A stretch of 64,000 bases of DNA, taken from contig PLZV01000058.1 in the NCBI GenBank assembly GCA_003152315.1, positions 1 through 64,000 of the forward strand, given 5' to 3'. This document shows positions 36,022 through 61,110 of the stretch, in pieces. A program made the translations under genes and the position numbers. The notes beneath the pieces were generated by a model. The model worked only from the letters and a program-made list of their open reading frames with translations, was not told the DNA's origin and did no database searches. Position 1 is the first letter of the stretch. Each line of letters starts with the position of its first letter. This DNA is from Verrucomicrobiota bacterium (GTDB lineage Bacteria > Verrucomicrobiota > Verrucomicrobiia > Palsa-1439).

Positions 36022-36255
36022 TTGAGCAGTGGTCGCGGCCAACTGCGCTTCATGGTGGTGCACCGCCGAGTCACCGCAGCCCAGTTTGTCGAGTTCTTGC
36101 GTTGGCTGTTCTATCGGCCACAGCAGCCGATCTTTCTGATTTTGCACGGACATTCGATTCATCACAGCTACAGTGTCGCACGCTTCTTGCATAGTTGGCA
36201 GGGACGCTTGCGTCTATTCTATCTGCCGCCGTATTCGCCCGAGCTCAATCCTGTA
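36022..36255 (+). mobile_element. IS630-family transposase fragment
   Basis: The fragment covers part of the DDE domain of an IS630 transposase. The catalytic Asp of 'VDGH' reads LHGH and the catalytic Glu after 'SPELNP' is missing, so it is inert. No inverted repeats or TA duplication could be seen. It has replaced the front of the operon gene that follows. Confidence 0.75.
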
Positions 36256-37725
36256 CCATGCAATTACACGCATGGCGGGCTGAAATTCGAGTCGCTTCAC
36301 CCCGCAAAGCGCCGCGCCGTGTTCGCCCAAATCCTGCCCTGGCTGCGCGGTCAGGTCAGCCAGCAACGGCGGTTCATCGGCACGGTCCAGGACGACGACA
36401 CCATGTTGCGGTTCGTCAACAGTGCCGACGCGCCCCGGCTCGCCGAACTCGGGACGTCCTGCCCCGATCATTTTCTCCGGACCAAGATCAAACCGCTGTG
36501 CGTGGACTGGAATCCGCAGGCGGAGGACGCCGCCGCGCTGAAGAAGAAACTCGCCGCCGGCCTCGTGAAGCACCGCGAGGACTACGCCGCCTATTACAAC
36601 AAGTGCAAACAGGCCAACTCGCCTGCCATGCGCGACTCCAACCCGACGGTGATTCTCGTGCCCGGACTCGACATGATCGCGTGGGGCAAGGACAAAAGCG
36701 AATCGCGCGTCACCGCCGAGTTCTACAACGGCGCGGTGGAAGTGATGCGCGGCGCGGAAGCCAATGACGAGTACATCGCGCTGCCGCAACATGAAGCGTT
36801 CGACATCGAGTACTGGCTGCTTGAAGAAGCGAAGCTGCAACGGATGCCGCCCGAGAAGGAACTGGCCCGGCAGGTGATCGCTATCATCGGTGCCGGCAGC
36901 GGTATCGGCAAGGAGGTCTCCCATCGCCTGGTCAAGGAAGGTGCGCACATCGTCAGCGTTGACCTCAACGCCAACGCGGCTCAAGCCACCGCAAAAGAAA
37001 TCACCGACAAATTCGGCGTCGGCATCGGCGTGGCCGGCACGGGCATCTCCAATTGCGGCTCGGCCATCGGACTGGCGGCCGACATCACCAGGCGCGACAG
37101 CATCCGCGCGATGCTCGACGACATCGTGCTGGCTTACGGCGGCCTCGACAGCATTGCGATCACCGCCGGCATCTTCGTGCCGCCGGACGCGACCGGGCAC
37201 GTCGCCGACGACAAATGGGCGCTGACGTTCGCGATCAATGTGACCGGCGCCTACCTCGTCGCCGATGAGGCCGCGAAACTCTGGCGCGAACAGGCGTTAC
37301 CGCCCAATCTCGTGCTCACAACCAGCGTCAACGCCGTCGTGGCGAAGAAGGGCAGCGTGGCCTACGACACGAGCAAGGCCGCCACCAACCATCTCATGCT
37401 GGAATTGGCCGTCGAGTTGGCGCCGTTGGTGCGCGTCAACGGCGTGGCGCCCGCGATAGTGGTCGATGGCAGTGCGATGTTTCCGCGCGACCGCGTGCTC
37501 GCGTCGCTGGCAAAATACTCAATCTCTCACACCGAGAGCGAATCCGATGATCAACTACGCAGCAAGCTCGCCCGATTCTACGCTGATCGTACGCTCACGA
37601 AGGGGCCGATTACGACGGCTGACCAGGCTGAGGCGATCTTCCTGCTGCTCACAAAGCGCTTGGACAATACGACCGGCCAGATCATCAGCGTGGACGGGGG
37701 CCTGCCCGAAGCATTTTTGCGCTAG
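36022..37725 (+). CDS. Chimera: IS630 transposase fragment fused to headless RhaD-dehydrogenase (RhaE/W type)
   Basis: One 567-residue frame opens with TTG at 36022, about 11 bases after a GGAGGAA. Residues 1 to ~78 are an IS630-type transposase piece (FVEFLRWLFYRP, FLILHGHSIHHS, LFYLPPYSPELNP). From about residue 93 it continues as the bifunctional rhamnulose-1-phosphate aldolase/short-chain dehydrogenase, but without the zinc-binding aldolase core. What remains is the linker (RFVNSADAPRLAELG, CPDHFLRTKIKPL) and an intact SDR domain with GAGSGIG (290-296), NVTGAYLV and AYDTSK. It may still act as a lactaldehyde-type dehydrogenase, or be decaying; no stop interrupts it. Confidence 0.85.
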   Translation: MSSGRGQLRFMVVHRRVTAAQFVEFLRWLFYRPQQPIFLILHGHSIHHSYSVARFLHSWQGRLRLFYLPPYSPELNPVPCNYTHGGLKFESLHPAKRRAVFAQILPWLRGQVSQQRRFIGTVQDDDTMLRFVNSADAPRLAELGTSCPDHFLRTKIKPLCVDWNPQAEDAAALKKKLAAGLVKHREDYAAYYNKCKQANSPAMRDSNPTVILVPGLDMIAWGKDKSESRVTAEFYNGAVEVMRGAEANDEYIALPQHEAFDIEYWLLEEAKLQRMPPEKELARQVIAIIGAGSGIGKEVSHRLVKEGAHIVSVDLNANAAQATAKEITDKFGVGIGVAGTGISNCGSAIGLAADITRRDSIRAMLDDIVLAYGGLDSIAITAGIFVPPDATGHVADDKWALTFAINVTGAYLVADEAAKLWREQALPPNLVLTTSVNAVVAKKGSVAYDTSKAATNHLMLELAVELAPLVRVNGVAPAIVVDGSAMFPRDRVLASLAKYSISHTESESDDQLRSKLARFYADRTLTKGPITTADQAEAIFLLLTKRLDNTTGQIISVDGGLPEAFLR

Positions 37726-45446: not shown

Positions 45447-47302
45447 TGAATCCGAAGACAATCGAGAGTCCAGCCGTTTTGGATCGAACAAAACGAAAGT
45501 CCTGTTCACGACCCATCGAATCGCCCACTTTGGCAAAGGCGTTTGCCCGAAAACGCGTCAGCCTGAACGGCCAATGGCAGTACATCGTTGATCCTTACGA
45601 CACGGGCTACCGCGATTATCACCAACAACTCTATGACACGGCAACCAACCCTTCTGGTGGATATTTCCTCGATCGCTCTCCCCGTGATTCATCGGAGTTG
45701 ATTGAATACAGCTTTGATGACAGCCCCACTCTCAACGTGCCGGGCGACTGGAATTCGCAGGATGAGAAACTTTTCTACTACGAAGGGACCGTCTGGTATC
45801 GGCGCAAGTTCAACTTCAAAAAATCGGCGGCTCAGAACCGCCTATTTGTCTATTTCGGCGCGGCCAACTACGAGAGTGACGTTTACCTCAATGGCAAAAA
45901 GCTTGGCAAGCATGTCGGTGGATTCACGCCGTTCAGCTACGAGATCACTGCGCTGGTCCGCGCCACGAACAATTCGCTTGTCATGCGCGTAAATAACCAG
46001 CGGACGCTTGGGGCCGTGCCGACGGTGAACACCGACTGGTGGAACTACGGCGGCATTACCCGTGACGTGCTGCTGATCGAGACACCGGCAACGTTCATTG
46101 CCGGTTTTCGTGTGCAACTCAAACCCGGTAGCACGAACATAATCGAGGGCCGGGTGCAACTCGACGGAGCGCAAAAGGAGCAGACCATCAGGGTGGCGAT
46201 CTCCGATCTCAAGCTGTCCGCCGAAGCACGCACGGATACCAATGGCCTCGCTCATTTCGAATTGGCAGCCAAAGAACTCCCGCTCTGGTCGCCCCTACAT
46301 CCGTCGCTGAACACGGTGACGATTGCGTGTGACACGGACCAAATTTCTGACCGCATCGGCTTTCGCACGATTGAGACTCGCGGCACGAACGTCCTGTTGA
46401 ATGGCGAGCCGGTTTTTCTTCGAGGCATATCGATCCACGAGGAGAATCCCTTGCGCGGCGGGCGGGCGTGGTCGGCGGAAGACGCGCGGCTGTTGCTCGG
46501 CTGGGCCAAGGACCTGAACTGCAACTTCGTACGCCTGGCGCATTACCCGCACAGCGAGAACATGGCGCGGTTGGCCGACGAAATGGGCATCATGGTTTGG
46601 GAAGAGATTCCCGTGTATTGGACCATCCAGTGGACGAACGCGGAGACGCTGCAACTGGCACAATCCCAGCTTGAAGAGCTGATCACGCGCGACCAGAACC
46701 GGGCCAGCGTTGTCGTATGGTCAGTCGCCAACGAAACCCCCGTCAGTGCGGAACGGACGAGTTTTTTGAAAGCGCTCGTGGACAGCGCGCGGTCGGCCGA
46801 TGGCACGCGGTTGATTTCTGCCGCGATGGAAGTGCGTTCTGACCCGGACAATCCCGACCACAAAATTGTCGACGACCCATTCAGCGAGTTTACCGATCTA
46901 TTGAGTTTTAACCAATATATTGGCTGGTATGACGGTACGCCCGACAAGCTGGATCGCGTGACCTGGACGATCAAATATGCCAAGCCGGTGTTCATCAGCG
47001 AATTTGGCGCAGACGCCAAACAGGGGTTGCACGGGGACTCGCGTACCCGATTTAGCGAGGAGTATCAGGAGGATCTTTACCGACGAACACTACTGATGCT
47101 GCAACGGATTCCCGGCTTCACTGGCCTGACCCCGTGGATTTTGTGCGACTTTCGCTCCCCACGCCGTCCGCTGCCGAAGATTCAGGATGGCTGGAATCGG
47201 AAGGGACTTATCGGCCAGAACGGGGCGAGAAAAAAAGCCTTTGCCGTTTTGAAAAAGTTCTATGACAAAATGGAAACCTCAGGCAGGAGCCAAACTGGAT
47301 GA
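45446..47302 (+). CDS. GH2 glycoside hydrolase (beta-galactosidase/beta-glucuronidase type)
   Basis: The 618-residue protein has a jelly-roll (about 40-215, WYRRKFNF, NYESDVYLNG), an Ig-like domain and a TIM barrel. The acid/base is Glu430 in WSVANE and the nucleophile Glu519 in FISEFGAD; DWWNYGGITRDV and VRLAHYPHSE are typical GH2 landmarks. No signal peptide is apparent: the first 40 residues are basic and polar, unlike the secreted neighbours, so it may be cytoplasmic or the annotated start may be too early. It overlaps the GH128 gene by one base and the next GH2 gene by ATGA. PWILCDFRSPRR resembles beta-glucuronidases. Confidence 0.88.
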   Translation: MNPKTIESPAVLDRTKRKSCSRPIESPTLAKAFARKRVSLNGQWQYIVDPYDTGYRDYHQQLYDTATNPSGGYFLDRSPRDSSELIEYSFDDSPTLNVPGDWNSQDEKLFYYEGTVWYRRKFNFKKSAAQNRLFVYFGAANYESDVYLNGKKLGKHVGGFTPFSYEITALVRATNNSLVMRVNNQRTLGAVPTVNTDWWNYGGITRDVLLIETPATFIAGFRVQLKPGSTNIIEGRVQLDGAQKEQTIRVAISDLKLSAEARTDTNGLAHFELAAKELPLWSPLHPSLNTVTIACDTDQISDRIGFRTIETRGTNVLLNGEPVFLRGISIHEENPLRGGRAWSAEDARLLLGWAKDLNCNFVRLAHYPHSENMARLADEMGIMVWEEIPVYWTIQWTNAETLQLAQSQLEELITRDQNRASVVVWSVANETPVSAERTSFLKALVDSARSADGTRLISAAMEVRSDPDNPDHKIVDDPFSEFTDLLSFNQYIGWYDGTPDKLDRVTWTIKYAKPVFISEFGADAKQGLHGDSRTRFSEEYQEDLYRRTLLMLQRIPGFTGLTPWILCDFRSPRRPLPKIQDGWNRKGLIGQNGARKKAFAVLKKFYDKMETSGRSQTG

Positions 47303-50300
47303 TTGCAACGTTATTCATCCACTATCGACGGACGCTGCTGGGCACCCTGGCGGTTTTCAGTTTGGCTCTGCCAGTGGCAGCTCAGACCTATACTCCGCCG
47401 CCCAACAATCGCGCGGACATCGATTTGGATCCCGGCTGGCGGTTTATCCGACAGGATGTTACCGGGGCGCAAACCAACGGGTTTGATGATTCGACCTGGA
47501 CCCCGCTGAGCTTGCCGCACACATGGAACAATCTGGACGGCCAGGACGGGGGCAACAATTACTACCGCGGCATCGGCTGGTATCGCAAGCATTACACGGT
47601 GGATGCCAGCTACACGAACCGGCATCTCTTTATCAAGTTCGACGCGGCATTTTACGTGGCGGACGTGTATGTCAACGGCACTTTGTTGGGCGAACATCAA
47701 GGCGGTTTCGGGGCATTTGTTTTTGACATCACGACCAACGTCAACATTGGCGGTGACAATGTCATCGCCGTAAAGGTCAACAACGCTTCCAACGCCAGCA
47801 TTGCGCCGTTGAGCGCGGACTTCACTTTTTTCGGCGGCCTCTATCGAGACGCGCATCTGTTGGTGACGGACCCGGTCCACATCTCACCCCTGGACTACGG
47901 CTCGCCCGGGGTTTATCTCAAACCCACCAACGTCAGTTCCAATTCTGCCAATCTCCAGGTCACCACGGTGGTCTCCAACGCCAATGCCGCGGCTGTGACG
48001 GTGACGGTGCGTGCCGTCGTCACGGACGCGGCAACGAACATCGTCATGACCGTATCAAACGTCATCACGCTGGCGGCGGCGTCGGGGTCGAACGTGGTGT
48101 CGAGTGCAGTGCTGGCAAATCCCCATTTATGGAACGGACTGGCCGACCCCTATCTCTACCGGGCTTTTGTGGAGATTTACAATGGCTCAAACCTCACGGA
48201 TCTGGTCAGCCAATCGCTGGGTTTTCGCTGGTTCAGCGTGGACCCGAACAACGGCTTTTTCCTCAATGGCCGGTCGTATGATCTGCACGGAGTTGACATG
48301 CATCAGGACTGGCTGAACTACGGTTGGGCGCTGACCAACGGCCAGCGTGACGTCAATTTCATGTTTCTCAAGGAACTCGGTGTAACGGGTATGCGGCTCT
48401 CGCATTATGAGCATCATGATTATACCTACCAATTGGCGGATCAAAACGGCATCGTTTTGTGGAGCGAAATCCCGCTGGTCAACGGGGTCACCGAGACGAC
48501 GGCGTTCTACAACAATGCCAAACAACAGCTTCGGGAGTTGATCCGGCAACGATATAACCATCCCTCCGTGGTCTGCTGGGGGATGTACAATGAACTCACC
48601 CTGAACGTGAACACCGCGCCAACCAATCTGGTCAATCAATTGGTTCAACTGGAAGCGCAAGAAGACCCAACGCGTCCGTCCACCGCCGCCACGCTGGCCA
48701 GCAACGGAGATGCAAACACTTGGTATCCGCAACTGGCCAGCTTTAATGAGTACTTTGGCTGGTATGAAGACCCGTTGAATGGCATCGCCTCCTGGGCGGA
48801 CAATCTCCACGCGAGTCATCCGACCAACTGCATCGGCATCAGTGAATACGGTGCTGGGGCGAGCATTTACCAGCACAGCGAGGATCCGGTCGCCAAACCC
48901 GGTCAAAGCTGCGTCTGCACCCACCCGGAAGAATGGCAGAACATCGTTCACGAAACCAACTGGCAGCTGATGAAGGCGCTGCCGTTTATTTGGTGCAAGT
49001 TCCTCTGGAACATGTTTGATTTTGCTTCCGACGGACGCAACGAGGGCGACACGCCGGGCCGCAACGACAAAGGACTGGTCACCTACGACCGCCAGATCCG
49101 CAAGGACGCCTTCTATTATTACAAGGCCAACTGGACCACCAACGCCATGGTTTACATCACCGGCCACACATTCACGAACCGGTTGGCGAATTCCATCACC
49201 GCCAAAGTCTATGCCAACTGCGATTCGGTCGAATTGTTTCTCAACGGGACCTCACAAGGCACGCGCACGAGCACCAATTTTATTTATACCTGGCCGATCG
49301 CACTCGTCGGTGGCAGCAACCTAGTCCAGGCCATTGGCACCAAAGGCAGCACGCAAGTGAACGATTCCCTGGTTTGGTTCGCCCCAATCAGCGTGGTGAT
49401 CACCAGCCCGGCTACTTCGACCGTTTATCTGAACAGTACGAGTGACACATTGCAACTGGCTGCTTCCACACCGGGTTCTTCCGGCTCGATCCAGACCGTT
49501 TGGGCACAGATCAGCGGTCCCGGCGCCGTCACCTTCGGGAACAGCAATGCCCTGGCGACGACGGCGCGGTTCAGTGCGGACGGTGTATATGGGTTGAGTG
49601 TGACCGTCAGTAACGGGGCCGTGGCGAGCGCGGGACTGACCGTTGTTGTCAACCCAAGTGTCGCAGTCACCAATGGGTTGCTGGCCTGGTGGAAGATGGA
49701 TGAAACCGGGGGCACGACCGCGGCGGATTCCTCCGGCAACGGCCGCACCGCGACCCTGACCAGCGCCAGCTTCACCAACGGATACCTTTCCAATGCGCTT
49801 CAATGCAACGGCTCGACCAGCCGGGCCACCTATTCCGCCCAGGATTCAAACCAGGTGACCGTCACCGCGTGGGTCCGCGCCACTGCGCAAGGCGGCGGTT
49901 TGTTCCCTCGCATCGTGGATGCGCCGGCATATCGCTTTTTTTTCCGCTTCAGCAGTTCTGACGTGAACAGTGTAGGCTTCGCCACAGAGGACAGCGTCAA
50001 TGGCGATTTTGATTCGGGTGGCAACACCATCAACACCGGCGTCTGGTTTCATGTTGCGGCCAGTTATGATCGCAGCAACCTCACCAATGTGCCGACGCTC
50101 TATGTCAACGGAACGAAATTGCCGACGGTGACTCTGACCCCACCATCGGGCACCGCGCCGCCTCTTACCGGCACCGGCTACATCGGCAACCGGTCCGCGC
50201 TCGATCGGGGTTGGAGTGGCCAGATCGATGATTTGCGAATTTACAGCCGTCTCCTTTCGGATGCTGAAATCCAGGCGCTGTTCACGATGCCGCCGACAAA

Positions 50301-50796
50301 CATTGCACCCATCGTGTCCGCCGGCACGAACCAAACTGTTATCTGGCCCGTGATCGTGAGCTTGAGCGGCAGCGTGACCGACGACGGGAAACCCAACCCG
50401 CCTGGGGTGACGACCACGACATGGAGCCAGATCAGCGGGGCCGGCACGGTTGCCTTCGGCAACCCGAACGCGGTTTCCACCACGGCCAGTTTCTCCGCCT
50501 CCGGCATTTATCTCCTGCAGCTTGCCGCTAACGACGGGCAAGCGCAAACTGTCGCCAACGTTGTCGTCTCTGCAGTCACCCAGCCGACCCTTGCCATCCA
50601 ATTGCTTCCCGGTTTTATACAATTGTCCTGGCCGACGAGCTGCTGCAACTGGCGGCTGCAATTTCAAACGAATTCGTTCAACGTTGGGATGACCACCAAT
50701 TGGGTGGACGTGTTGGGTTCGACTGCCACCAACGAGATGAGTTTCCCAATCGACACAAACATCGGCTCCGCTTTCTTCCGGATGGTCTTTCCGTGA
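47299..50796 (+). CDS. Secreted GH2 beta-galactosidase-like enzyme with LamG and Ig-like domains
   Basis: The 1165-residue protein has a signal peptide ending LALPVAAQ. The GH2 N-terminal jelly-roll includes SLPHTWNN and GIGWYRKHY. The barrel carries the acid/base Glu432 in WGMYNE and the nucleophile Glu516 in ISEYGAG. After the barrel, a DUF4982-like Ig domain (~625-700) is followed by Ig-like repeats (~700-790), a LamG domain (~790-1000), another Ig-like repeat and a C-terminal beta module. Its ATG overlaps the previous GH2 stop. The pair would remove beta-galactosyl or beta-glucuronyl units; galactose could feed galK. Confidence 0.87.
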   Translation: MIATLFIHYRRTLLGTLAVFSLALPVAAQTYTPPPNNRADIDLDPGWRFIRQDVTGAQTNGFDDSTWTPLSLPHTWNNLDGQDGGNNYYRGIGWYRKHYTVDASYTNRHLFIKFDAAFYVADVYVNGTLLGEHQGGFGAFVFDITTNVNIGGDNVIAVKVNNASNASIAPLSADFTFFGGLYRDAHLLVTDPVHISPLDYGSPGVYLKPTNVSSNSANLQVTTVVSNANAAAVTVTVRAVVTDAATNIVMTVSNVITLAAASGSNVVSSAVLANPHLWNGLADPYLYRAFVEIYNGSNLTDLVSQSLGFRWFSVDPNNGFFLNGRSYDLHGVDMHQDWLNYGWALTNGQRDVNFMFLKELGVTGMRLSHYEHHDYTYQLADQNGIVLWSEIPLVNGVTETTAFYNNAKQQLRELIRQRYNHPSVVCWGMYNELTLNVNTAPTNLVNQLVQLEAQEDPTRPSTAATLASNGDANTWYPQLASFNEYFGWYEDPLNGIASWADNLHASHPTNCIGISEYGAGASIYQHSEDPVAKPGQSCVCTHPEEWQNIVHETNWQLMKALPFIWCKFLWNMFDFASDGRNEGDTPGRNDKGLVTYDRQIRKDAFYYYKANWTTNAMVYITGHTFTNRLANSITAKVYANCDSVELFLNGTSQGTRTSTNFIYTWPIALVGGSNLVQAIGTKGSTQVNDSLVWFAPISVVITSPATSTVYLNSTSDTLQLAASTPGSSGSIQTVWAQISGPGAVTFGNSNALATTARFSADGVYGLSVTVSNGAVASAGLTVVVNPSVAVTNGLLAWWKMDETGGTTAADSSGNGRTATLTSASFTNGYLSNALQCNGSTSRATYSAQDSNQVTVTAWVRATAQGGGLFPRIVDAPAYRFFFRFSSSDVNSVGFATEDSVNGDFDSGGNTINTGVWFHVAASYDRSNLTNVPTLYVNGTKLPTVTLTPPSGTAPPLTGTGYIGNRSALDRGWSGQIDDLRIYSRLLSDAEIQALFTMPPTNIAPIVSAGTNQTVIWPVIVSLSGSVTDDGKPNPPGVTTTTWSQISGAGTVAFGNPNAVSTTASFSASGIYLLQLAANDGQAQTVANVVVSAVTQPTLAIQLLPGFIQLSWPTSCCNWRLQFQTNSFNVGMTTNWVDVLGSTATNEMSFPIDTNIGSAFFRMVFP

Positions 50797-51041: not shown

Positions 51042-52772
51042 ATGATAAAGACAGTGCTCACGAAGGTGCTGACAGTGGTCTGCCTTGTCGGTTTGGTCAC
51101 CAGTACGGTCGCCACAGTCACGCTCGCGAGTCCTCAGGTTACCCTCATCCCGGTCACCGACGGCAATCCGCCCGCCAGCGGGTATGGCTACGCGGGCGTC
51201 ACGGATAACTCCGTCAACGCCGTCCCATTTATCTGTTCGGGGTTGATGACCGTGAGCAACCAGCAATTCCTCACGTATTATGGCCAGCACCAGACGGATC
51301 CTTCCTACACCTTCAACGGCACCATCTGGGTCGCGCGGCGCACGGTCGGCTCGAACACTTGGGAAGTATTCCGGACCACTTTCACGCCGAACGATATCAA
51401 CGACGGCCACGACGTGGTGAGCTTCGGCATTGATGGCGAGGGCTACATGCATATTAGCTGGGGTATGCACAATGACGTGCTGAATTATGCGCTGAGCACG
51501 ACACCGGTGACGGGGACCAATTCAATTGCTTTCGGGCCGAATCTCGGCCCGATGACCGGCGGCGAAGTGACCAACACCTATCCGCAGTTCCTGACGATGC
51601 CCAATGGCGACCTGCTTTTCTTTTGTCGCAGGGGCGGGCCCGGCGGCGGGTCAGGTGGCGGCGACTCCTACCTCAACCGGTACGTTCTGTCCTCGCACAC
51701 CTGGACAAACGTCAACATGACCAACGGGGTGTTCCAGCCGTTTATCAAAGGCTATTGGAGCGCGAGTGATAATTACAATGCGTATCCCAACATGCCGTGT
51801 CTGGACGCGGCGGGCAATCTGTTCCTGACCTGGACCTGGCGTGAGACCCCCGCCTACCAATCCAATCACGATTTTCTTTATGCCCAGTCACCGGATGGTG
51901 GTGTCACCTGGCAGCACAGTAACGGCAGCGCCTACAAACTGCCGATTTGTAAACTTAACGAGGCCGGCGCCAACTCGGTCGCCCAGAGGATTCTCGTCAT
52001 TCCCCAAAACTACAGCCTCATCAATCAGGCCGGTATGTGTCTGGATGGGAACAACCGTACGGTGATTGCCACGTGGTGGGCGCCCGGCACGCCGACGAGT
52101 AATTTCCAACGCCAATACATGGTTGTGTTCCCCGATTCCAACGGCGTGTGGCAGACGCGGCAGATTTCCAACCGTACCATAGACCCGCCCGGCATAATGC
52201 AACAGGATGCCACCGTGCGCGATCTGGGCCGGCCGGTGGTCGTCGCGGACAAGGACAATCGCATCATCGTGCTGTACCGCGACAACTCCGGCAGCAACGG
52301 CCTGACGATCGTGCACTCGTTGCCGTACGCGGTCGATCCGTTGCGCACGAACTGGACGGCGGTGGTTCTGACCACCGATAACCTGGGGTCGTATGAGCCG
52401 GTGATCGACCTGGCGCGGTGGCAAATCGACAACGTCATGGACATCTTGTACCAACCCAACACCGGCCATGGGTATGTGTCACCATCGAACAACGCATCGC
52501 CGATTGGCGTGCTCGAGTGGGACGCCGGGGCTTACTTCAATTACGTGCCGACGTTGCAGATGATGTTCACCAATGGGAATCAGGACGTGGCACTCTCCTG
52601 GCAGTCGCAAACCGGCTGGGGCTACCAGGTCCAGTCGAGCACCAATTTGCCGGCGTGGGATGTCCTGACCACACTCAACGGCAACGAAGGCACCTTACAG
52701 TACACCCACACCAACGCCGCCACCGTTCCTGCGCGTTTCTGGCGCTTGCAAACGAAAGAGGGAGGATTCTGA
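51042..52772 (+). CDS. Secreted BNR_4-type beta-propeller protein, candidate polysaccharide lyase/hydrolase
   Basis: The 576-residue protein has a signal peptide (VLTVVCLVGLVTSTVATVTLA). It then shows BNR_4-type propeller repeats: DGHDVVSFGIDGEGYMHISW, TYPQFLTMPNGDLLFF, CLDAAGNLFLTWTWRETP, QSPDGGVTW and RDLGRPVVVADKDN. A C-terminal module of about 70 residues (VALSWQSQTGWGYQVQSS...RFWRLQ) is typical of verrucomicrobial secreted proteins. Seven-bladed BNR_4 proteins include lyases acting on rhamnose-uronate polymers such as ulvan and related families; I cannot assign the reaction. It is a close paralogue of the second half of the protein at 58426-61110. Confidence 0.8.
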   Translation: MIKTVLTKVLTVVCLVGLVTSTVATVTLASPQVTLIPVTDGNPPASGYGYAGVTDNSVNAVPFICSGLMTVSNQQFLTYYGQHQTDPSYTFNGTIWVARRTVGSNTWEVFRTTFTPNDINDGHDVVSFGIDGEGYMHISWGMHNDVLNYALSTTPVTGTNSIAFGPNLGPMTGGEVTNTYPQFLTMPNGDLLFFCRRGGPGGGSGGGDSYLNRYVLSSHTWTNVNMTNGVFQPFIKGYWSASDNYNAYPNMPCLDAAGNLFLTWTWRETPAYQSNHDFLYAQSPDGGVTWQHSNGSAYKLPICKLNEAGANSVAQRILVIPQNYSLINQAGMCLDGNNRTVIATWWAPGTPTSNFQRQYMVVFPDSNGVWQTRQISNRTIDPPGIMQQDATVRDLGRPVVVADKDNRIIVLYRDNSGSNGLTIVHSLPYAVDPLRTNWTAVVLTTDNLGSYEPVIDLARWQIDNVMDILYQPNTGHGYVSPSNNASPIGVLEWDAGAYFNYVPTLQMMFTNGNQDVALSWQSQTGWGYQVQSSTNLPAWDVLTTLNGNEGTLQYTHTNAATVPARFWRLQTKEGGF

Positions 52773-52787
52773 GCCCACTTCGCTGAT

Positions 52788-53528
52788 ATGGATCCAAAGC
52801 CCTCACCCAAAAACACTTCGCTCCGTTGGCTGGTTGTTTTTGTTGTTGTCGCGGCGATAACCACGATCTTCTTGTTGCGACGAGACGGGGGCCGGAGCCG
52901 CGACTTGCCGGGTCACACCTCGGCTGCGACGGGTACCGTCGTGCGGACTTCACCGGTGCCTGTCGCCAAAGCAGTTGTGTCCAACGAAGCGAGCCGGCGG
53001 CCAGAGACAACCACGTACGCTTCGTTTCAAAAACGTCCTTTTCAGGTAGTGACCGCCAGCAACGACTACGAATGGACTGCGGAAGACGGCAAGAGCACGA
53101 ATGTGATCCGTCAGCTTGCCCACAACGACCTGGAATATCAACGGATGGTGGAGGAAAACTCTCGGATCATTCGTCGTCAACTGGTCTATGACAAGGATAC
53201 CGCCGCCGCATTGATCGAACGGGCCAGATTGACGGGCGAACCGATTCGACGCCTCACCCTGCCGGGATTGGATGGTCAGGAAGTGGAGTTCGAGATCACG
53301 AAGGCGGATCTCAATCCCTCGGGACAACAAGGGATGTTCGCCGGGCGCGTCGCTGGCCGGGCGGACTCGATGGTGACATTGGCGTTCAAAGGCGGCCGCG
53401 AGGCGTTCACGGTCATCTCGCCATCGGAGAACCTGTTTCTCCAGGGCGACCCCCATGAGCCGGGCGATCTCATCGTGAAGAGCATTGACCCGGATACGTA
53501 CGTGCTTGGTGTTTGTGGAAACCCATGA
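52788..53528 (+). CDS. Membrane-anchored protein resembling a metallopeptidase propeptide
   Basis: The 246-residue protein has one N-terminal membrane segment (about 13-30, LRWLVVFVVVAAITTIFLL) and a Ser/Thr/Pro-rich stretch. A conserved-looking domain follows (EWTAEDGKSTNVIRQLAHND, RQLVYDKDTAAALIERARLT, LPGLDGQEVEFEITKADL, MFAGRVAGRADSMVTLAFKG). I recall similar segments as the N-terminal part of verrucomicrobial proteins carrying reprolysin-like peptidases. Here it is a separate gene whose stop overlaps the start of the metallopeptidase-like gene as ATGA. A chaperone or inhibitor role for that partner is inference. Confidence 0.6.
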   Translation: MDPKPSPKNTSLRWLVVFVVVAAITTIFLLRRDGGRSRDLPGHTSAATGTVVRTSPVPVAKAVVSNEASRRPETTTYASFQKRPFQVVTASNDYEWTAEDGKSTNVIRQLAHNDLEYQRMVEENSRIIRRQLVYDKDTAAALIERARLTGEPIRRLTLPGLDGQEVEFEITKADLNPSGQQGMFAGRVAGRADSMVTLAFKGGREAFTVISPSENLFLQGDPHEPGDLIVKSIDPDTYVLGVCGNP

Positions 53529-56500
53529 ACAGCGCCTCCATACGAAGCCGAAACAATCGTTGCTCAAGAAGACCTGGGTTTGCGAGCTGTATCACCCTGG
53601 GCCTGTGGCTTATTGCCATCCTGGCGGATCCGACGGCTTCAAGGGCAGCTGTTACTTTGACGACTGGTGACAGTTTGGGCAATTCGTCGTTCAACACCGC
53701 GGGTAACTGGAGCGAGGCCCTGGCTCCGCACTCCGGCACTAGCTACGTGGTGTCCGTCATTCAGTTGCGCACGCCGGCCTCTGGAAGCAGCTTCACTTTC
53801 CTGGGCGATTCGCTCACGATTGGCAGCGGCGGGCAATTTACTTTCAAGGGAACCGGAACCGCCGGCATCATCACGGTGACCAACCTGATTCTCAACGGCG
53901 GTTCGATTACGCACTTGGACGCTGCAGGTGACCTTTTCCAACTCGCCGGAAACCTCAATATCACTGCTGACTCGATGATCTACGCCAAGCAGGGGCCGAT
54001 CGTCATCACCGCGGTGATCAGCGGTAATGGCCGATTCACCAATCCGGGGGCCGACGGGACTTCCAGCATCCTGACTATTTCCAACAGCGTCAACACCTGC
54101 ACCGGCAGCATCGTTAATAACGGACGCTTTACATTGTTCGCTAATGCCAATTTGAATTTTGTAATTGGCGCCAGCAACGTCAACAACCGGGTTTCCGGCA
54201 CGGGTGCGGCGACGACCTTCAATGGTCGATTCGTCTTCGACCTTTCCGGTGCGAGCACGAACTTCGGCGATAGCTGGACGATTGCGAGCGCGTCGGGGCA
54301 AACTTTCGGCGCCACGTTCAGCGTTGACGGATTCAGCCGTCAGGGTTTCGGGACCGGCCCGGGCACGTGGGACTTGAGCGCCAACGGTGTCGTCTACGAG
54401 TTCGTCACGTCAACGGGTGTCATGACGGTGCTGGCCCAGGCGAGTGCCGCCGTCTCGACCACCACCTTGGGCGTTCGCGGCGGAAAGTTCGGCTTCGTGG
54501 AAGCTGATCTCGCCGCCTGTTACGCGCCGAGCTATGCGTCGAGCGTCGGCGGGGAGGACAACGCGCAGGTGCTGATCGCCAACACTGTCGTGGGCAGCAA
54601 TCAAATACAGGATCAGGGCGGCACGGGCGCGCACATGCGCATCGCGGGTTTCTACCAGTCCAGCAACGACCTCATCAATGCCACCACCACCGGCGGCATC
54701 GTGGGTTGGTTGTCCGGCAACAATGCCAACGTTCAGGACATAGTGGCATTCGGCTCTTCGGTCGGCGCGGATCTTTTGGTCTATATTTGCCAGGATAGCG
54801 ACTTCGCCACCATCGCCGGGGTCTCGCAACAGCCGGGCATGTATTCGGCCCTCAATCCCGGCGCGGTCTTTTATCCTGTCCTGGCGCATGAAACGGGCGG
54901 CCACAGTTACGGCCGGTCGCACTCCGACGGCGTTCTGAATCCCAAGACCATCATGCTGCACAACTACTGCGGGGGTGGCGCGGCGCCACCCTATTTTTAC
55001 ACGAATCCAAACATCTGGTTCAATGGCGTCGAACTCACCGGGGATCCGAACAACAACTGCTCCATGGGCGCGCTGATCAACGGCGGCGACAACTCGGCGC
55101 CCAGCCCGGAGGTCGTGGCGGATCGGCGCCCGCGCGTCGTGGTCGGGCCGAACTTGAACAACGCCGTCTTGCACTGGTCATTTACCAACGCGCCGGGATT
55201 CGCCCCGGCTGGCACGACGATTCCCGATCAGATTTCCGCCGCGCCGGCCGTCGTGCGCGGCACGAACGCGGTGTTCACCGGCGGCGCGCTGCGGATCCCC
55301 GGTGGTAGCAGCGGCAACGCGGCCGCCAATTCCATCGCGGCTTATATTGATTTGCCGAACGGCATCGTCTCCAGCCAAACGAATATCACCATTGAGATCT
55401 GGGCCAGACCGCTTTCCGGGCCGACTTCCGCTCGCATTTTTGATTTTGGCCGAACGGTGCAGGCGGGCGACGGTCTCGGCGCGGCCGGCGAATATACCGG
55501 TACACCCGGGACTCCGGCACCGGGCGTCACGCAAGCATCGGACGACATTCTATTGACGGCCGCGATCACGGACCTTAACGAGCAACGCTTCCATGCCCAA
55601 CTCAACGGCGGCACGGCGATCACGCTCGACGCGGGGCTGGCCACGACCGCGGGCGTGCAGCATCACTACGCGATCACGTTCACGGACGGCGCGGGAAGTT
55701 TCGGCGGCGCGGGCGGCCGCTGGCAGTGGTACCGCGACGGCGACGCGGTCGCATTTCTCGACGTGAACTTCCATCTGGCCGATATCGAAGATGTGAATAA
55801 CTGGCTGGGCCGTCCGCAGTTGAGCAGTGATTTGATGGCCAACACCGAGTATGCGGAAGTGCGCATCAGCAACGTGGTGTTGACACGCAACCAGCTTCTG
55901 GCGAACTATCTGCTTGGGCCGAATTACGTCCCCACAGCGACCGTTACGCTCACCAATGGCGATGCGGTGGGGGCGACTTCCTTCAACGCCGCCGGTCAGT
56001 GGAGCAACGGCGCGGCGCCCTCCAGCGGCAATAGCTATGAGACGCTTAATTTCCAGTTACTCACGCCCTCGTCGGGCAGCCCGTTCGCGTTCCTCGGGGA
56101 TTCGCTGAGAGTTTCCGGCGGCGCGCTGCTTTTTGGAGGCACGAGCGGCAGCACGATCACGATCACCAACCTCATCCTCAACGGCGGCGGGGTGCGAAAT
56201 TCCGGCTCGGGGATTTGCACGCTGGCCGGCAACATCCTGGTGACCACCAACGGCGCGGAATTCAACGGCGTGAACGGCGGAGACATCATTGCCGCTAACC
56301 TCAGCGGCAATGGCCCGATCACGTATCTGGGCAACGCCACCACGCTCTCCGGCAACAACAGCGGGTTCACCGGCAAGACGTTCATCGGCAACGGCGCGGC
56401 CGGCACGGTGGTCATCGATTCGCAGGCGCGTCTCGGCCCGAACCCGGCCGTGTTTACCCCCGACCAACTGTCCTTCGATCGCGGCACGTTGCAAGTCACG

Positions 56501-58132
56501 ACATCGATGGCCCTCGGTGATTCCAATCGCGGCATCTTCCTGGATGTGAGCGGCGGCACGTTCAATGTTCCCTCCGGCGTGACGCTGACGCTGTCCAACA
56601 CCCTGTCGACTCCGGTCACGGCGGCGAATATCGTGGTTGGCTCGATCACCAAAGCCAACGCCGGGACGTTGGTCCTGAGCAGCCCGACCAATTCGTTCAA
56701 AGGAACACTTTTCGTGGACACGAGCAACAATGCGGGCAACGACGGCGTCGTGAAATTGGTAAACAATCAGGTGCTGGCCGGTGCGCACTCACCGATTATC
56801 ATCCGCAATAACAATAGTGGGACCTCGACGTTTCAACTGGATGGCACGGCCGGCAACCTCACGTTGTCGCAAGGTATCATGGTGAATTGCCGGAACAACA
56901 CCAGCCCGGCGATCGAAAACCTCGTCGGCACAAACACAATCAACGGATTCGTCACGCTGAGTTCCGGCGGCAGTCTCTTTAACATTCAGTCGGACGCCGG
57001 CCTTTTGATTCTCGCCGGCACCAATCAGTATCTCGGTTCATTGGTCGGCGGGCGCACCTACACGTTCCAGGGTGCGGGCGACCATTTGGTTTCCGGCCCG
57101 ATTCTCAATTCCACAAACGGCTCGCCCATCAGTCTATCGAAGTCCGGTACCGGTCGGCTGACGCTCACCGCGACAAACACCTACACCAGTACGACGACCA
57201 TCAATAGTGGCACGCTAGCGGTCTCCGGCAACGGCTTGATTGCCAACAGCGCGACCATTACCGTGGCTGGCGCTGCGACCCTGGATGTCAGCGGCCATAA
57301 CGGCGGAGGGATGACAATTGCCAGCGGCCAGACCTTGGCTGGTGGCGGCACGGTCACTGGCGCAGTGACGATTGCCAACAGTGCGACCTTGTCGCCCGGC
57401 GTTGGAGGACCCGGGACGCTGACGGTCAACGGCAATCTGGTGCTGAACAATTCCTCAACACTGGCCTATGAGTTGGGCACCAGCAGCGACCGGACGGTCG
57501 TCAACGGCAACCTGACGCTGGACGGCGTTCTGAACGTCACCGATGCGGGCGGGTTTGCGAGCGGCAACTACACGCTGATCACCTACACGGGCACGCTGAC
57601 GGACAACGGTCTCACGGTCAGTAATCCTCTGCCGGGCGGATTGGTCGGCACGATCGATAGCGGCGGCGGCACCGTGGTCTTGCAGGTCGCCGTTCCACTC
57701 GATCCGTTTGCCGCGTGGCAGAATCAGTACTTCGGCAGCACCAACTGCGCGCTGTGTGGTGGCGATGCGGACTTCGACAGCGACGGTCTGACTAACACCA
57801 ACGAGTTTCTGGCCGGGTTCAACCCGACCAACACCGCGGCCTATCCGCACATCATCGCCATCGCGGTCTCGAACGGCACGGACATTGCGATTACCTATCT
57901 CGGGTCCAACGGCGACACGAACTATCCGGGCGGGCCGTTGACGCGCACCAACGTGCTGGAGTTCGCGACGGGCACGGTCGACGGCAGCTACACGAACAAT
58001 TTTGCGAGCACGAGTCTGACGAACGTCCTCAGCGGTGGAATCGGTCTCGGCACAAACGTCACCGCGACCGAACCGTTTGGCGCGACCAACAGTCCGGCGC
58101 GGTACTACCGTGTCCGTGTGCTGGTGCCGTGA
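53525..58132 (+). CDS. Giant secreted metallopeptidase-like protein with LamG and beta-strand repeats
   Basis: The 1535-residue protein has a signal peptide ending ASRAA and an N-terminal beta-strand repeat domain (~42-305). A metzincin-like domain (~310-495) has the zinc-site sequence HETGGHSYGRSH near residue 455, one residue longer than the usual HExxHxxGxxH. A LamG domain (~550-795), a second beta-strand repeat region (~800-1390) and a C-terminal module with DADFDSDGLTNTNEFLAGF follow, ending YYRVRVLVP. The ATG at 53525 is chosen for the ATGA overlap. It is presumably a surface protein that degrades or binds protein or glycoprotein; activity is uncertain because of the unusual motif. Confidence 0.75.
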   Translation: MNSASIRSRNNRCSRRPGFASCITLGLWLIAILADPTASRAAVTLTTGDSLGNSSFNTAGNWSEALAPHSGTSYVVSVIQLRTPASGSSFTFLGDSLTIGSGGQFTFKGTGTAGIITVTNLILNGGSITHLDAAGDLFQLAGNLNITADSMIYAKQGPIVITAVISGNGRFTNPGADGTSSILTISNSVNTCTGSIVNNGRFTLFANANLNFVIGASNVNNRVSGTGAATTFNGRFVFDLSGASTNFGDSWTIASASGQTFGATFSVDGFSRQGFGTGPGTWDLSANGVVYEFVTSTGVMTVLAQASAAVSTTTLGVRGGKFGFVEADLAACYAPSYASSVGGEDNAQVLIANTVVGSNQIQDQGGTGAHMRIAGFYQSSNDLINATTTGGIVGWLSGNNANVQDIVAFGSSVGADLLVYICQDSDFATIAGVSQQPGMYSALNPGAVFYPVLAHETGGHSYGRSHSDGVLNPKTIMLHNYCGGGAAPPYFYTNPNIWFNGVELTGDPNNNCSMGALINGGDNSAPSPEVVADRRPRVVVGPNLNNAVLHWSFTNAPGFAPAGTTIPDQISAAPAVVRGTNAVFTGGALRIPGGSSGNAAANSIAAYIDLPNGIVSSQTNITIEIWARPLSGPTSARIFDFGRTVQAGDGLGAAGEYTGTPGTPAPGVTQASDDILLTAAITDLNEQRFHAQLNGGTAITLDAGLATTAGVQHHYAITFTDGAGSFGGAGGRWQWYRDGDAVAFLDVNFHLADIEDVNNWLGRPQLSSDLMANTEYAEVRISNVVLTRNQLLANYLLGPNYVPTATVTLTNGDAVGATSFNAAGQWSNGAAPSSGNSYETLNFQLLTPSSGSPFAFLGDSLRVSGGALLFGGTSGSTITITNLILNGGGVRNSGSGICTLAGNILVTTNGAEFNGVNGGDIIAANLSGNGPITYLGNATTLSGNNSGFTGKTFIGNGAAGTVVIDSQARLGPNPAVFTPDQLSFDRGTLQVTTSMALGDSNRGIFLDVSGGTFNVPSGVTLTLSNTLSTPVTAANIVVGSITKANAGTLVLSSPTNSFKGTLFVDTSNNAGNDGVVKLVNNQVLAGAHSPIIIRNNNSGTSTFQLDGTAGNLTLSQGIMVNCRNNTSPAIENLVGTNTINGFVTLSSGGSLFNIQSDAGLLILAGTNQYLGSLVGGRTYTFQGAGDHLVSGPILNSTNGSPISLSKSGTGRLTLTATNTYTSTTTINSGTLAVSGNGLIANSATITVAGAATLDVSGHNGGGMTIASGQTLAGGGTVTGAVTIANSATLSPGVGGPGTLTVNGNLVLNNSSTLAYELGTSSDRTVVNGNLTLDGVLNVTDAGGFASGNYTLITYTGTLTDNGLTVSNPLPGGLVGTIDSGGGTVVLQVAVPLDPFAAWQNQYFGSTNCALCGGDADFDSDGLTNTNEFLAGFNPTNTAAYPHIIAIAVSNGTDIAITYLGSNGDTNYPGGPLTRTNVLEFATGTVDGSYTNNFASTSLTNVLSGGIGLGTNVTATEPFGATNSPARYYRVRVLVP

Positions 58133-58219: not shown

Positions 58220-58425
58220 ATGCTTTCCCACAACAGGTTAAACATTGAAGCGGTTGAGTTATCTGAGGATTGAGTTAATGTACTGGCTCGGCAAGGGTGG
58301 AATCGCCGCTTTGCGCACGCACCTGTGTGCGTAACCGGTTGCTCGCATCGCCGAGTGGACAGGTATACAAGTACGACTTCAGACTGGGTCGACGAGACAA
58401 CGGGCAGCGCCGCGGGGATAGACAC

Positions 58426-61110
58426 ATGTTAAATACAGTGCTCAAGAAGGTGCTGGCCGCGGTTTGCATCACCCCTCCCGTCGGCTTCTGGCGCTTGCCC
58501 ATTCACCCCTCACGAGACGTTCGCGGCACATTCGGGGAATGCCGCGCTCATTGCGGTGCAGCCGTGATTATCTCGGTGCTTGTGGCCGCACTGGCCGGCC
58601 CGGTGGCTTCGCGCGCGGCAACCGTTACGCTGACGGCTGGCGATAACCTGGGTACGACCTCGTTCAACACCGGCTTGAACTGGAGCGATCACTTGCCGCC
58701 CGCCGCGAGCAACGATTACGTGGTCTCAATCTCTCAACTCCGCACGCCTCCCGATGGCAACAGCTACACTTTTGGTGGCAATTCGTTGACGATCAATACC
58801 ACTGGCTCCCTTTTTTACAAGGGCACCGGCGGCGCAGGCGTTATCACCGTGACCAACCTGATTCTCAACAGCGGCACGATCATCCATAACAGCGGTACGT
58901 TGGACAATCTTATGCTTGCCGGAAACCTCAACGTCCCGGCTGATTCGGTGATCTATGCGAAGCAAGGGCCAATTACCATCAGTGCGGTGATCATTGGTAA
59001 TGGCAAGATCACCGACCCAGGAGCTGACACGACTGCATCCGTGTTGACCATTTCTGCAAATAACAACACCTACACGGGCAGCATCGTCAACAACGGACGC
59101 TTTCAACTGGCAGCCAACGCCAACCTGAATTTCGTGATTGGCGCCAACAACGTCAACAACAGCGTTTCCGGCGCGGGCGCGCAAACCACGTTCAATGGCA
59201 ACTTCGTTTTCAACCTATCCGGCGCCAGTGCCAACCTGGGCGATAGCTGGACGATTGCGAGCGCGTCAGGACAAACCTTTGGCAGCACGTTCACCTGCGT
59301 CGGATTCAGCCATCAGGGCGGCGGAACCGGCTCGGGGTTCTGGGATTTGGGCGCGAACAGCGTTTACTACGAGTTCAATACGTCGTCGGGTGTTTTGACC
59401 GTGGTTTCTCAGCCGTCAACAAACTCTATTCCCCCGGGTCCTCCGGGCTTGACGGGCGTGAAGGGGACGTACATCCCGGTTGACGACGGCAACACCAATA
59501 CCAGCGAGTACGGGTACGCTGGGAGTACTGATAACTCCATCAACGCCGTACCTTTCATCTGTTCGGGGTTGATGACCGTGAGTAACCAGCAGTTTATCTC
59601 CTACTATTATCGTAACCAGACCAGTGCGACGGACACGAACAACAACACCATCCTCATTGGCCGTCGCAATACTAGCACGAACCTCTGGCAGGTCTATCAC
59701 ACATCGTTCACCCCCGACGACATCACCGACGGCCACGACGTGGTGAGCTTCGGCATTGATGGCGAAGGATACATGCACCTGAGTTGGGGCATGCACAACG
59801 CCACACCGGTGAAGTACGCGCGCAGCACGACGCCGGTGACGGGCACCAATTCGATTGTTTTCGGGCCGAATCTCGGCTTCATAACCGGCGGCGAAGTGAC
59901 CAATACCTATCCGCAGTTCCTAACGATGCCCAACGGCGATTTGCTCTACATTTGTCGCAGAGGCGGGCCCGGCGGTGGGTCCGGCGGCGGCGACAATTAC
60001 CTCGACCGTTACAGTCTGTCCACGCACACCTGGACAAACGTGAACATGACGGGCGGGGTGTTCCAGCCGTTCATCAAAGGCTATTGGTCGGCGGCCACAA
60101 ATTACAATGCGTATCCGAACATGCCGTGTCTGGACGCCGCGGGCAATCTCTTCTTGGTTTGGACCTGGCGCGAGACCCCCGCCTACCAGTCCAATCACGA
60201 TTTTTTCTATGCCCAGTCGACGGACGGCGGTGTCACTTGGCAGCGCAGCGATAATAGCGCCTACACGCTGCCGATTTCGCAATATGGTATTCACGAAAGC
60301 GGCAGCACCAATTCGATTGCCGAGAAAATTCTGAGTATTCCCCAGAACTCCAGCATCATCAACCAGGCCGGCATGTGCCTTGATGGGAATGATGATCCCG
60401 TCATCGCCACATGGTGGGCGCCCGGCACACCGACGAGTAATTTTCGCCGCCAGTACATGGTCGTGTTCCCTGACTCCAACGGCGTGTGGCAGACGCGGCA
60501 AATATCCAACCGCACCAATGACCCGCCCGGCACATTGGAACAGGACGCCGCCGTGCGCGATCTGGGCCGGCCCGTCGTTGTGGCGGACAAAGACAATCGC
60601 ATCATCGTGCTGTACCGCGACAACTCTGGCAGCAACGGCCTGACGGTCGTGCACTCGTTGCCGTACGCGGTGGATCCGTTGCGCACGCACTGGACGACGG
60701 TTGTTCTGACCACGGATAACCTGGGGTCGTATGAGCCGGTGATCGATCTGGCGCGGTGGCAAATCGACAACGTCATGGATATCCTGTACCAGCCCAGCAC
60801 CGGCCACGGTTATACGGCGCCGGCGAACACGGCATCGCAGGTTGCCGTGCTCGAATGGAACGCTGCGGCTTATTTCAATCCAATGCCCCCGTTGCAAGTG
60901 ACATTCACCAACGCGAACCCGAACGTCGCGCTCTCCTGGCCATCGCAAACCGGCTGGGGCTACCGACTCCAATCGAGCACAAACCTGCCCGTGTGGGATG
61001 TTCTCAGTACGCTCAACGGCAACGAGGGTACCCTGCAATACATCCACACCAACGCCGCCGCTGTCCCCGCGCGCTTCTGGCGCTTGCAAATAAGGGAAGG
61101 CGGTTTTTGA
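58426..61110 (+). CDS. Secreted fusion of beta-strand repeat domain and BNR_4 propeller
   Basis: The 894-residue protein begins with a short stretch like the 51042 gene's signal (TVLKKVLAAVC), then a second signal-like core (AAVIISVLVAALAGPVASRAA). Next comes a ~270-residue beta-strand repeat domain paralogous to residues 42-305 of the 53525 protein, and then a complete BNR_4 propeller plus C-terminal module nearly identical to the 51042 protein (DGHDVVSFGIDGEGYMHLSW, CLDAAGNLFLVWTWRETP, RFWRLQIREGGF). It appears to be a mosaic of its two neighbours. ATG 58426 is chosen because the sequence around it (GGATAGACACATG) matches that of the 51042 gene. Function as for that paralogue. Confidence 0.82.
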   Translation: MLNTVLKKVLAAVCITPPVGFWRLPIHPSRDVRGTFGECRAHCGAAVIISVLVAALAGPVASRAATVTLTAGDNLGTTSFNTGLNWSDHLPPAASNDYVVSISQLRTPPDGNSYTFGGNSLTINTTGSLFYKGTGGAGVITVTNLILNSGTIIHNSGTLDNLMLAGNLNVPADSVIYAKQGPITISAVIIGNGKITDPGADTTASVLTISANNNTYTGSIVNNGRFQLAANANLNFVIGANNVNNSVSGAGAQTTFNGNFVFNLSGASANLGDSWTIASASGQTFGSTFTCVGFSHQGGGTGSGFWDLGANSVYYEFNTSSGVLTVVSQPSTNSIPPGPPGLTGVKGTYIPVDDGNTNTSEYGYAGSTDNSINAVPFICSGLMTVSNQQFISYYYRNQTSATDTNNNTILIGRRNTSTNLWQVYHTSFTPDDITDGHDVVSFGIDGEGYMHLSWGMHNATPVKYARSTTPVTGTNSIVFGPNLGFITGGEVTNTYPQFLTMPNGDLLYICRRGGPGGGSGGGDNYLDRYSLSTHTWTNVNMTGGVFQPFIKGYWSAATNYNAYPNMPCLDAAGNLFLVWTWRETPAYQSNHDFFYAQSTDGGVTWQRSDNSAYTLPISQYGIHESGSTNSIAEKILSIPQNSSIINQAGMCLDGNDDPVIATWWAPGTPTSNFRRQYMVVFPDSNGVWQTRQISNRTNDPPGTLEQDAAVRDLGRPVVVADKDNRIIVLYRDNSGSNGLTVVHSLPYAVDPLRTHWTTVVLTTDNLGSYEPVIDLARWQIDNVMDILYQPSTGHGYTAPANTASQVAVLEWNAAAYFNPMPPLQVTFTNANPNVALSWPSQTGWGYRLQSSTNLPVWDVLSTLNGNEGTLQYIHTNAAAVPARFWRLQIREGGF

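What the first reader, a model, noticed from the sequence alone, without database searches (positions are those of the whole stretch)
52788..55000. Split metallopeptidase: separate propeptide-like protein and an unusual HETGGH zinc motif
A membrane-anchored protein resembling a peptidase propeptide is encoded just before, and translationally coupled to, a giant protein with HETGGHSYGRSH. The spacing between the first and second His is one residue longer than in metzincins. If active, this is a variant zinc site and a two-gene peptidase system; if not, a surface scaffold.
Basis: partly seen in the sequence, partly recalled or inferred. Interest (0 to 1): 0.6.

Follow-up and report, generated by a model that had tools for sequence, protein, structure and literature searches.

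The report
Split metallopeptidase with stretched zinc motif
Some Verrucomicrobiota bacteria appear to have cut a secreted protein-digesting enzyme in two, keeping its inhibitory propeptide as a separate membrane-anchored protein, and later lengthened the enzyme's zinc-binding motif by one residue; the sequences support this, but nothing has been tested at the bench.

Summary
Gene A (52788-53528) is a 246-aa membrane-anchored protein that overlaps gene B (53525-58132) by ATGA. B carries HETGGHSYGRSH (54887-54922), an HExxxHxxGxxH motif one residue longer than in metzincins. It is not a one-off: ten loci, window included, carry the extra residue, form one clade, and all have A next to B. An eleventh relative lost the site. 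In 384 genomes of the class, all 15 hits of the A profile lie beside (14) or fused to (1) a metzincin domain. A is homologous to the pro-region of single-chain M12B-like peptidases, and its C-terminal CGNP aligns with a cysteine-switch-like Cys present in 25 of 27 of them. The split occurs in canonical HExxH relatives too, so it most likely came before the insertion. Best reading: a zymogen gene split at the propeptide boundary. A is an inner-membrane chaperone/inhibitor acting in trans, as Acinetobacter CpaB does for CpaA; B is the secreted, probably active peptidase with a bulged zinc helix, as in DPP III. Activity, metal binding and export are inferred. The structure model of the catalytic domain failed. 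New variant of a known kind.

The parts
52788..53528 (+). Gene A: membrane-anchored propeptide-like protein, 246 aa
52827..52880 (+). N-terminal hydrophobic anchor of A
   Evidence: hydropathy
53223..53525 (+). part of A homologous to the pro-region of single-chain M12B-like peptidases
   Evidence: hhalign prob 96.3, E 1.9e-9; controls
53514..53525 (+). C-terminal CGNP of A, aligned with the cysteine-switch-like Cys of single-chain relatives
53525..53528 (+). ATGA stop/start overlap of A and B
53525..58132 (+). Gene B: secreted multidomain protein, 1535 aa, with the metzincin-like domain
53525..53647 (+). signal-peptide-like N-terminus of B
   Evidence: read from sequence
53651..54439 (+). N-terminal extension of B, 68% identical to the N-terminus of the neighbouring gene 58297-61110; in the aligned relatives the catalytic domain lies near the N-terminus
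54497..55171 (+). M12B-like metzincin domain of B
54887..54922 (+). HETGGHSYGRSH, HExxxHxxGxxH zinc motif
54944..54979 (+). Met-turn region KTIMLHNYCGGG, His at Met+2
55160..55960 (+). approximate laminin-G-like region, by alignment to relatives in which Pfam Laminin_G_3 is significant
   Evidence: not significant in the window protein itself
57131..57226 (+). passenger-type beta-strand repeat (PATR / autotrns_rpt)

Best explanation
A and B are the two halves of an M12B-like metallopeptidase zymogen whose gene was split at the boundary of propeptide and catalytic domain. B has its own signal peptide and is exported. A keeps the membrane anchor and the propeptide fold and stays in the inner membrane facing the periplasm. 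There it helps B fold and blocks its active site in trans until B leaves the cell, probably through a type II secretion system, as CpaB does for CpaA. In five of the eleven pairs of this family the A tail still carries the cysteine-switch-like Cys. The HExxxH motif arose once, inside this split group, by insertion of one small residue; the helix probably carries a pi-bulge so that both His still bind zinc, as in dipeptidyl peptidase III. Shown by sequence: homology, adjacency, single origin, conservation. Inferred: activity, metal binding, inhibition in trans, export route.
For: B domain: Pfam Reprolysin_5 matches 7 of 8 members at E<=1 (best 3.7e-8); two of the seven full-length relatives pass its cut-off (33.2 and 32.0 bits against 27). 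Family against canonical catalytic profile: prob 99.6, E 1.2e-23, 199 columns, one-residue insertion at the motif. A against single-chain pro-regions: prob 96.3, E 1.9e-9; reversed 0.7, ten column shuffles 0.0-0.1. A fused single-chain protein in G518 was found by the A profile alone, E 2.5e-6. Junction Cys in 25 of 27 single-chain rows with a residue there. A profile in 384 class genomes: 15 hits, 14 adjacent and 1 fused to a metzincin domain (with 18, 37, 38, 50, 72, 97, 98). The same 11 genomes hold strong A and strong B; 4 of these were not in the profiles. HExxxH clade 99/96 support, one change. Weak fold match to the ADAM17 prodomain and CpaB. Secretin, T2SSK and T2SSE hits clustered twice in the genome.
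Against: No protease, zinc or secretion data exist. The catalytic model failed (pLDDT 28.8). The A model is poor (mean 49.2) and its fold matches are not significant (Foldseek E 0.26; Z 6.3 is in the range common by chance). The window B domain alone is below every Pfam cut-off (14.4 bits against 22). The tail Cys of A is missing in 6 of 11 pairs of the family. G110 lost the second and third His but keeps both genes, so the pair can persist without an intact site. A has no PF01562 match in the window genome, but that search rang in no control either.
Confidence: 0.55

Rival explanations
1. A is purely a folding and secretion chaperone, B a zinc protein with little or no peptidase activity (adhesin or glycan-binding scaffold with laminin-G-like and passenger-type repeats).
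For: Large repeat and laminin-G content; one-residue insertion in a motif that is normally rigid; G110 has lost the site but keeps both genes.
Against: First His, Glu, second and third His and the Met are kept in 10 of 10 HExxxH members down to about 48% identity; purifying selection.
Confidence: 0.25
2. A is a standalone inhibitor that protects the periplasm only, with no folding role, like propeptide-like cathepsin inhibitors (CTLA-2, crammer).
For: Propeptide-derived domain with a Cys-containing tail in 5 of 11 pairs; such separate propeptide inhibitors exist (abstract of PMC4089206).
Against: Constant adjacency to one partner and membrane anchoring fit a dedicated chaperone better.
Confidence: 0.15
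3. The A/B split is an assembly or frameshift artefact of one single-chain zymogen.
For: Single-chain forms exist.
Against: Separate A and B in 11 class genomes plus L009, with B carrying its own signal peptide in the aligned relatives; one canonical pair has the order B then A (G386:C6).
Confidence: 0.01

Closest known systems
CpaA/CpaB protease and membrane-anchored T2SS chaperone of Acinetobacter (PMC4713064, PMC6299215, PMC7542363; passages read)
   Same: Adjacent genes; [quoted passage not shown] VIA-align ranks chain 6o38_M second for the A model, Z 6.2 (the row reads 'chaperone-substrate complex', that it is CpaB is recalled).
   Different: Gene order cpaA then cpaB; no sequence match found between A and any solved chain; B has HExxxH; CpaB was not described as a propeptide in the passages read.
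Single-chain M12B-like (Reprolysin_2 to 5) bacterial metallopeptidases
   Same: Catalytic domain and pro-region both homologous; membrane anchor + pro + catalytic order seen in G518.
   Different: One chain; canonical HExxHxx.xxH in all 32 canonical loci found, a few of which belong to split pairs; mostly Tyr at Met+2, against His in the HExxxH clade.
Dipeptidyl peptidase III (M49), HELLGH (PMC3268031, passages read), and tubulin carboxypeptidases TMCP with HExxxH (PMC10499314, passages read)
   Same: HExxxH with two zinc-binding His and a wider helical turn; removing one residue in DPP III still leaves an active enzyme.
   Different: Third ligand in DPP III is Glu downstream; here it would be His in HxxGxxH, and the sequence is metzincin-like.
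Lipase-specific foldases (Lif/LipH; abstracts in the listing and passages in PMC4713064)
   Same: Membrane-anchored steric chaperone encoded beside its client.
   Different: Unrelated client and no family match of A.

Membership tests
M12B / Reprolysin-like metzincins | profile score above the curated Pfam cut-off | tested here: met
   2 of 7 full-length relatives pass Reprolysin_5; the window protein itself does not
M12B / Reprolysin-like metzincins | HExxHxxGxxH zinc consensus with four-residue His spacing | tested here: not met
   HExxxHxx.xxH in 10 loci of the family; one degenerate
M12B / Reprolysin-like metzincins | Met-turn Met downstream of the motif | tested here: met
   Met invariant in the 8-row alignment and present in 11 of 11 family rows
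M12B / Reprolysin-like metzincins | metzincin fold | tested here: inconclusive
   model pLDDT 28.8; profile alignment over 199 columns only
M12B / Reprolysin-like metzincins | propeptide in the same chain | tested here: not met
   separate gene A in 11 of 11 family pairs
M12B / Reprolysin-like metzincins | zinc-dependent proteolysis | not testable with these tools
   needs an assay
T2SS dedicated membrane chaperones (CpaB type) | encoded adjacent to the client | tested here: met
   14 of 15 A hits adjacent, 1 fused
T2SS dedicated membrane chaperones (CpaB type) | N-terminal transmembrane anchor with periplasmic C-terminal domain | tested here: met
   hydrophobic stretch of 1.8 or more in 12 of 14 A proteins, 1.2 in two; topology inferred
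T2SS dedicated membrane chaperones (CpaB type) | chaperone needed for T2SS secretion of the client | not testable with these tools
   T2SS genes present
T2SS dedicated membrane chaperones (CpaB type) | CpaB fold | tested here: inconclusive
   Z 6.2 with a poor model
M49 dipeptidyl peptidase III | HExxGH plus downstream Glu ligand | tested here: inconclusive
   HExGGH or HELAGH present, but sequence is metzincin-like and the Glu ligand was not searched for
M12B propeptide PF01562 | profile match of A | tested here: not met
   no PF01562 match in any of 8 A proteins; homology seen only against bacterial pro-regions

The most novel reading that the evidence does not exclude
A natural gene fission turned a zymogen into a two-protein system in which a membrane-held propeptide works as a cysteine switch in trans. 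Freed from the single chain, the peptidase evolved a working metzincin site with HExxxH spacing and His in place of the Met+2 Tyr. By the weak fold match, CpaB-type chaperones may themselves be escaped propeptides.
Probability: 0.3. Interest if true: 0.78.

Novelty: new variant of a known kind. Interest (0 to 1): 0.6.

Why it matters
The spacing in the metzincin motif is treated as fixed (general knowledge). A clade with one extra residue, in which the two motif His, the Glu and the third His are kept in 10 of 10 members, makes it testable how far a zinc helix can be stretched. The split pairs, with canonical and fused relatives still present, show how a propeptide can become a dedicated secretion chaperone, and would give an evolutionary route to pairs such as CpaA/CpaB. 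Profile searches miss these enzymes: the window protein is annotated by no peptidase family at cut-off.

Tried and rejected
Single-protein and profile searches of solved structures gave no convincing relative: the first row was a designed protein (ThreeFoil, E 0.008, repeated short stretch away from the motif), and the best metzincin row was 1yp1 at E 0.52. Viral contigs, phages and plasmids gave no relative. A pattern hit in a viral contig (L065) is an unrelated HEHGGH stretch and was dropped. Structure prediction of the catalytic domain failed, so no fold search was run with it. Foldseek and VIA-align with the A model are reported as weak. A rule-based count of Met+2 Tyr gave 24 of 30 canonical rows; three of the six misses (L028, L044, L080) are mis-picks of the rule, two of them seen as MxY; the same rule mis-picked the Met in four family rows, whose Met-turns are read. 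Reprolysin_5 finds nothing in the own genome, showing the profile's blindness rather than absence. The print form HExxGHxxGxxH for M12B peptidases occurs in PMC10469887 (passage); all 32 canonical Verrucomicrobiota loci here have HExxH, so I take it as loose notation, but it may point to other cases. Searches for HExxxH metzincins in print; only PMC7804941 (M49) and PMC10469887 came up. Other phyla could not be sampled with the handles in hand, so absence outside Verrucomicrobiota is not claimed. L015 (G110) aligns with canonical length and was not counted as HExxxH.

Full report
What is there. Gene A (52788-53528) encodes 246 aa: a short positive N-terminus, one hydrophobic stretch, and a C-terminal domain ending in ...DPDTYVLGVCGNP. 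Gene B starts at ATG 53525, sharing ATGA with the stop of A, and encodes 1535 aa: signal-peptide-like start, a 263-aa extension, a metzincin-like domain with HETGGHSYGRSH and TIMLHNYC, a laminin-G-like region by alignment, and PATR repeats. Pfam and NCBIfam name neither A nor the catalytic domain of B at cut-off.

Relatives. One genome contig (L009, Verrucomicrobia subdivision 3, 81% identity) and seven of 141 related genomes, own included, match the domain. With the profile A1, 27 of 384 class genomes match at E<=1e-5 and 26 of 387 phylum genomes at E<=0.01, mostly distant canonical peptidases. Strong matches (E<1e-20) are in 11 of 384 class genomes, own included. In 47 loci fetched (window included), 9 have HExxxHxx.xxH, 32 canonical HExxHxx.xxH, and 6 neither: three short or off-domain matches, one with stops, a degenerate site (G110) and one without the motif. 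L009 makes ten HExxxH loci. The residue before GH is Gly in eight and Ala in two (HELAGH, G386 and G550). The tree puts the ten in one clade (99/96), next to G110 and then G326, a split pair with canonical HEIGHNYGASH; the branching below the clade is weak (87/17), and the tree is rooted only at its midpoint.

Gene pair. Every one of the 11 family members has an A gene directly upstream, overlapping or within about 30 bases of the likely start. In the class sample the A profile has 15 hits at E<=0.001 in 13 of 384 genomes; 14 lie beside a metzincin gene and one (G518) is the pro-region of a single chain with canonical HELGHNMGCGH. The phylum sample gave three further hits at E 0.003-0.005 (G207, G308, G027) that lie mostly outside the propeptide part of the profile; they were not followed. 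The pairs G326, G386:C6 and G112 (two) are split and not of the HExxxH type where read; for the second G112 pair (C30) the partner was identified by Pfam, not by reading the motif. In G386:C6 the order is B then A. So splitting is wider than, and probably older than, the longer motif. Profiles were built from eight members; G326, G386, G397 and G550 are outside them and still pair.

What A is. Against 28 pro-regions of single-chain peptidases the A alignment scores prob 96.3, E 1.9e-9 over 98 columns; the reversed alignment gives 0.7 and ten shuffles 0.0 to 0.1, and A does not match the catalytic domains. One of the 28 rows (L025, G112:C43) was later seen to be a split pair whose upstream stretch is not in frame with A; it was not removed. 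The aligned end of the pro-region has Cys in 25 of 27 rows with a residue there, matching the CG four residues from the end of A. I read this as a cysteine-switch position; that reading is recalled knowledge of M12B zymogens. The Cys is kept in 5 of 11 A tails of the family (window, L009, G075, G105, G397). The A model is poor, but its first Foldseek row is the ADAM17 prodomain (E 0.26, not significant) and VIA-align gives ADAM17 zymogen Z 6.3 and the chaperone chain 6o38_M Z 6.2 first and second. These are leads, not proof.

What B is. The family profile aligns with canonical M12B-like domains over 199 columns (prob 99.6, E 1.2e-23) with one residue inserted between HEx and GH. The stretch from HE to the Met-turn is 22-24 residues in the family rows read correctly, against mostly 39-51 in canonical rows. 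In the HExxxH clade the residue at Met+2 is His, where most canonical rows have Tyr; degenerate G110 has Phe there. His1, Glu, His2 and His3 are kept in 10 of 10. In an ideal alpha-helix positions i and i+5 face different ways; a pi-bulge would bring them together, and in DPP III the helix has five residues in that turn (PMC3268031, passages). This is inference for B.

Mechanism. CpaB is a membrane-anchored chaperone beside the adamalysin-like peptidase CpaA, needed for its secretion, and its C-terminal tail blocks the active site (PMC4713064, PMC6299215 and PMC7542363, passages). The same layout here, with A shown by profile comparison to be related to a propeptide, makes a trans-acting propeptide the best reading. 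The own genome has secretin, T2SSK and T2SSE hits close together on contigs C26 and C36, so a type II route is available. What B cuts is unknown; in the window it lies among carbohydrate-active genes, but the genes around the other pairs, read by eye, do not look alike.

Limits.

Noticed in passing
51042-52772 and 58297-61110: Two BNR_4 genes flanking the A-B pair are 79% identical over 547 aligned columns, suggesting a local duplication around the pair; both resemble an alpha-L-rhamnosidase model well below its cut-off.
   Followed up: partly
53651-54439 and 58624-59430: A 263-aa segment is shared at 68% identity by the N-termini of B and of the downstream BNR_4 gene: domain shuffling inside the locus.
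   Followed up: partly
36022-37725: ORF joining a DDE_3 transposase fragment to a short-chain dehydrogenase.
   Followed up: no
L048, L049, L063, L064: Split propeptide/peptidase pairs outside the HExxxH clade; three have canonical HExxH read from sequence, one was identified by Pfam only.
   Followed up: partly
L015 3300-11326: G110 member of 2360 aa has lost the second and third His but keeps the A gene, a likely pseudoenzyme.
   Followed up: no
C-termini of B genes and of 47299-50796: Several of these large secreted proteins end in a similar FYRL..P type tail, possibly a shared C-terminal domain.
   Followed up: no
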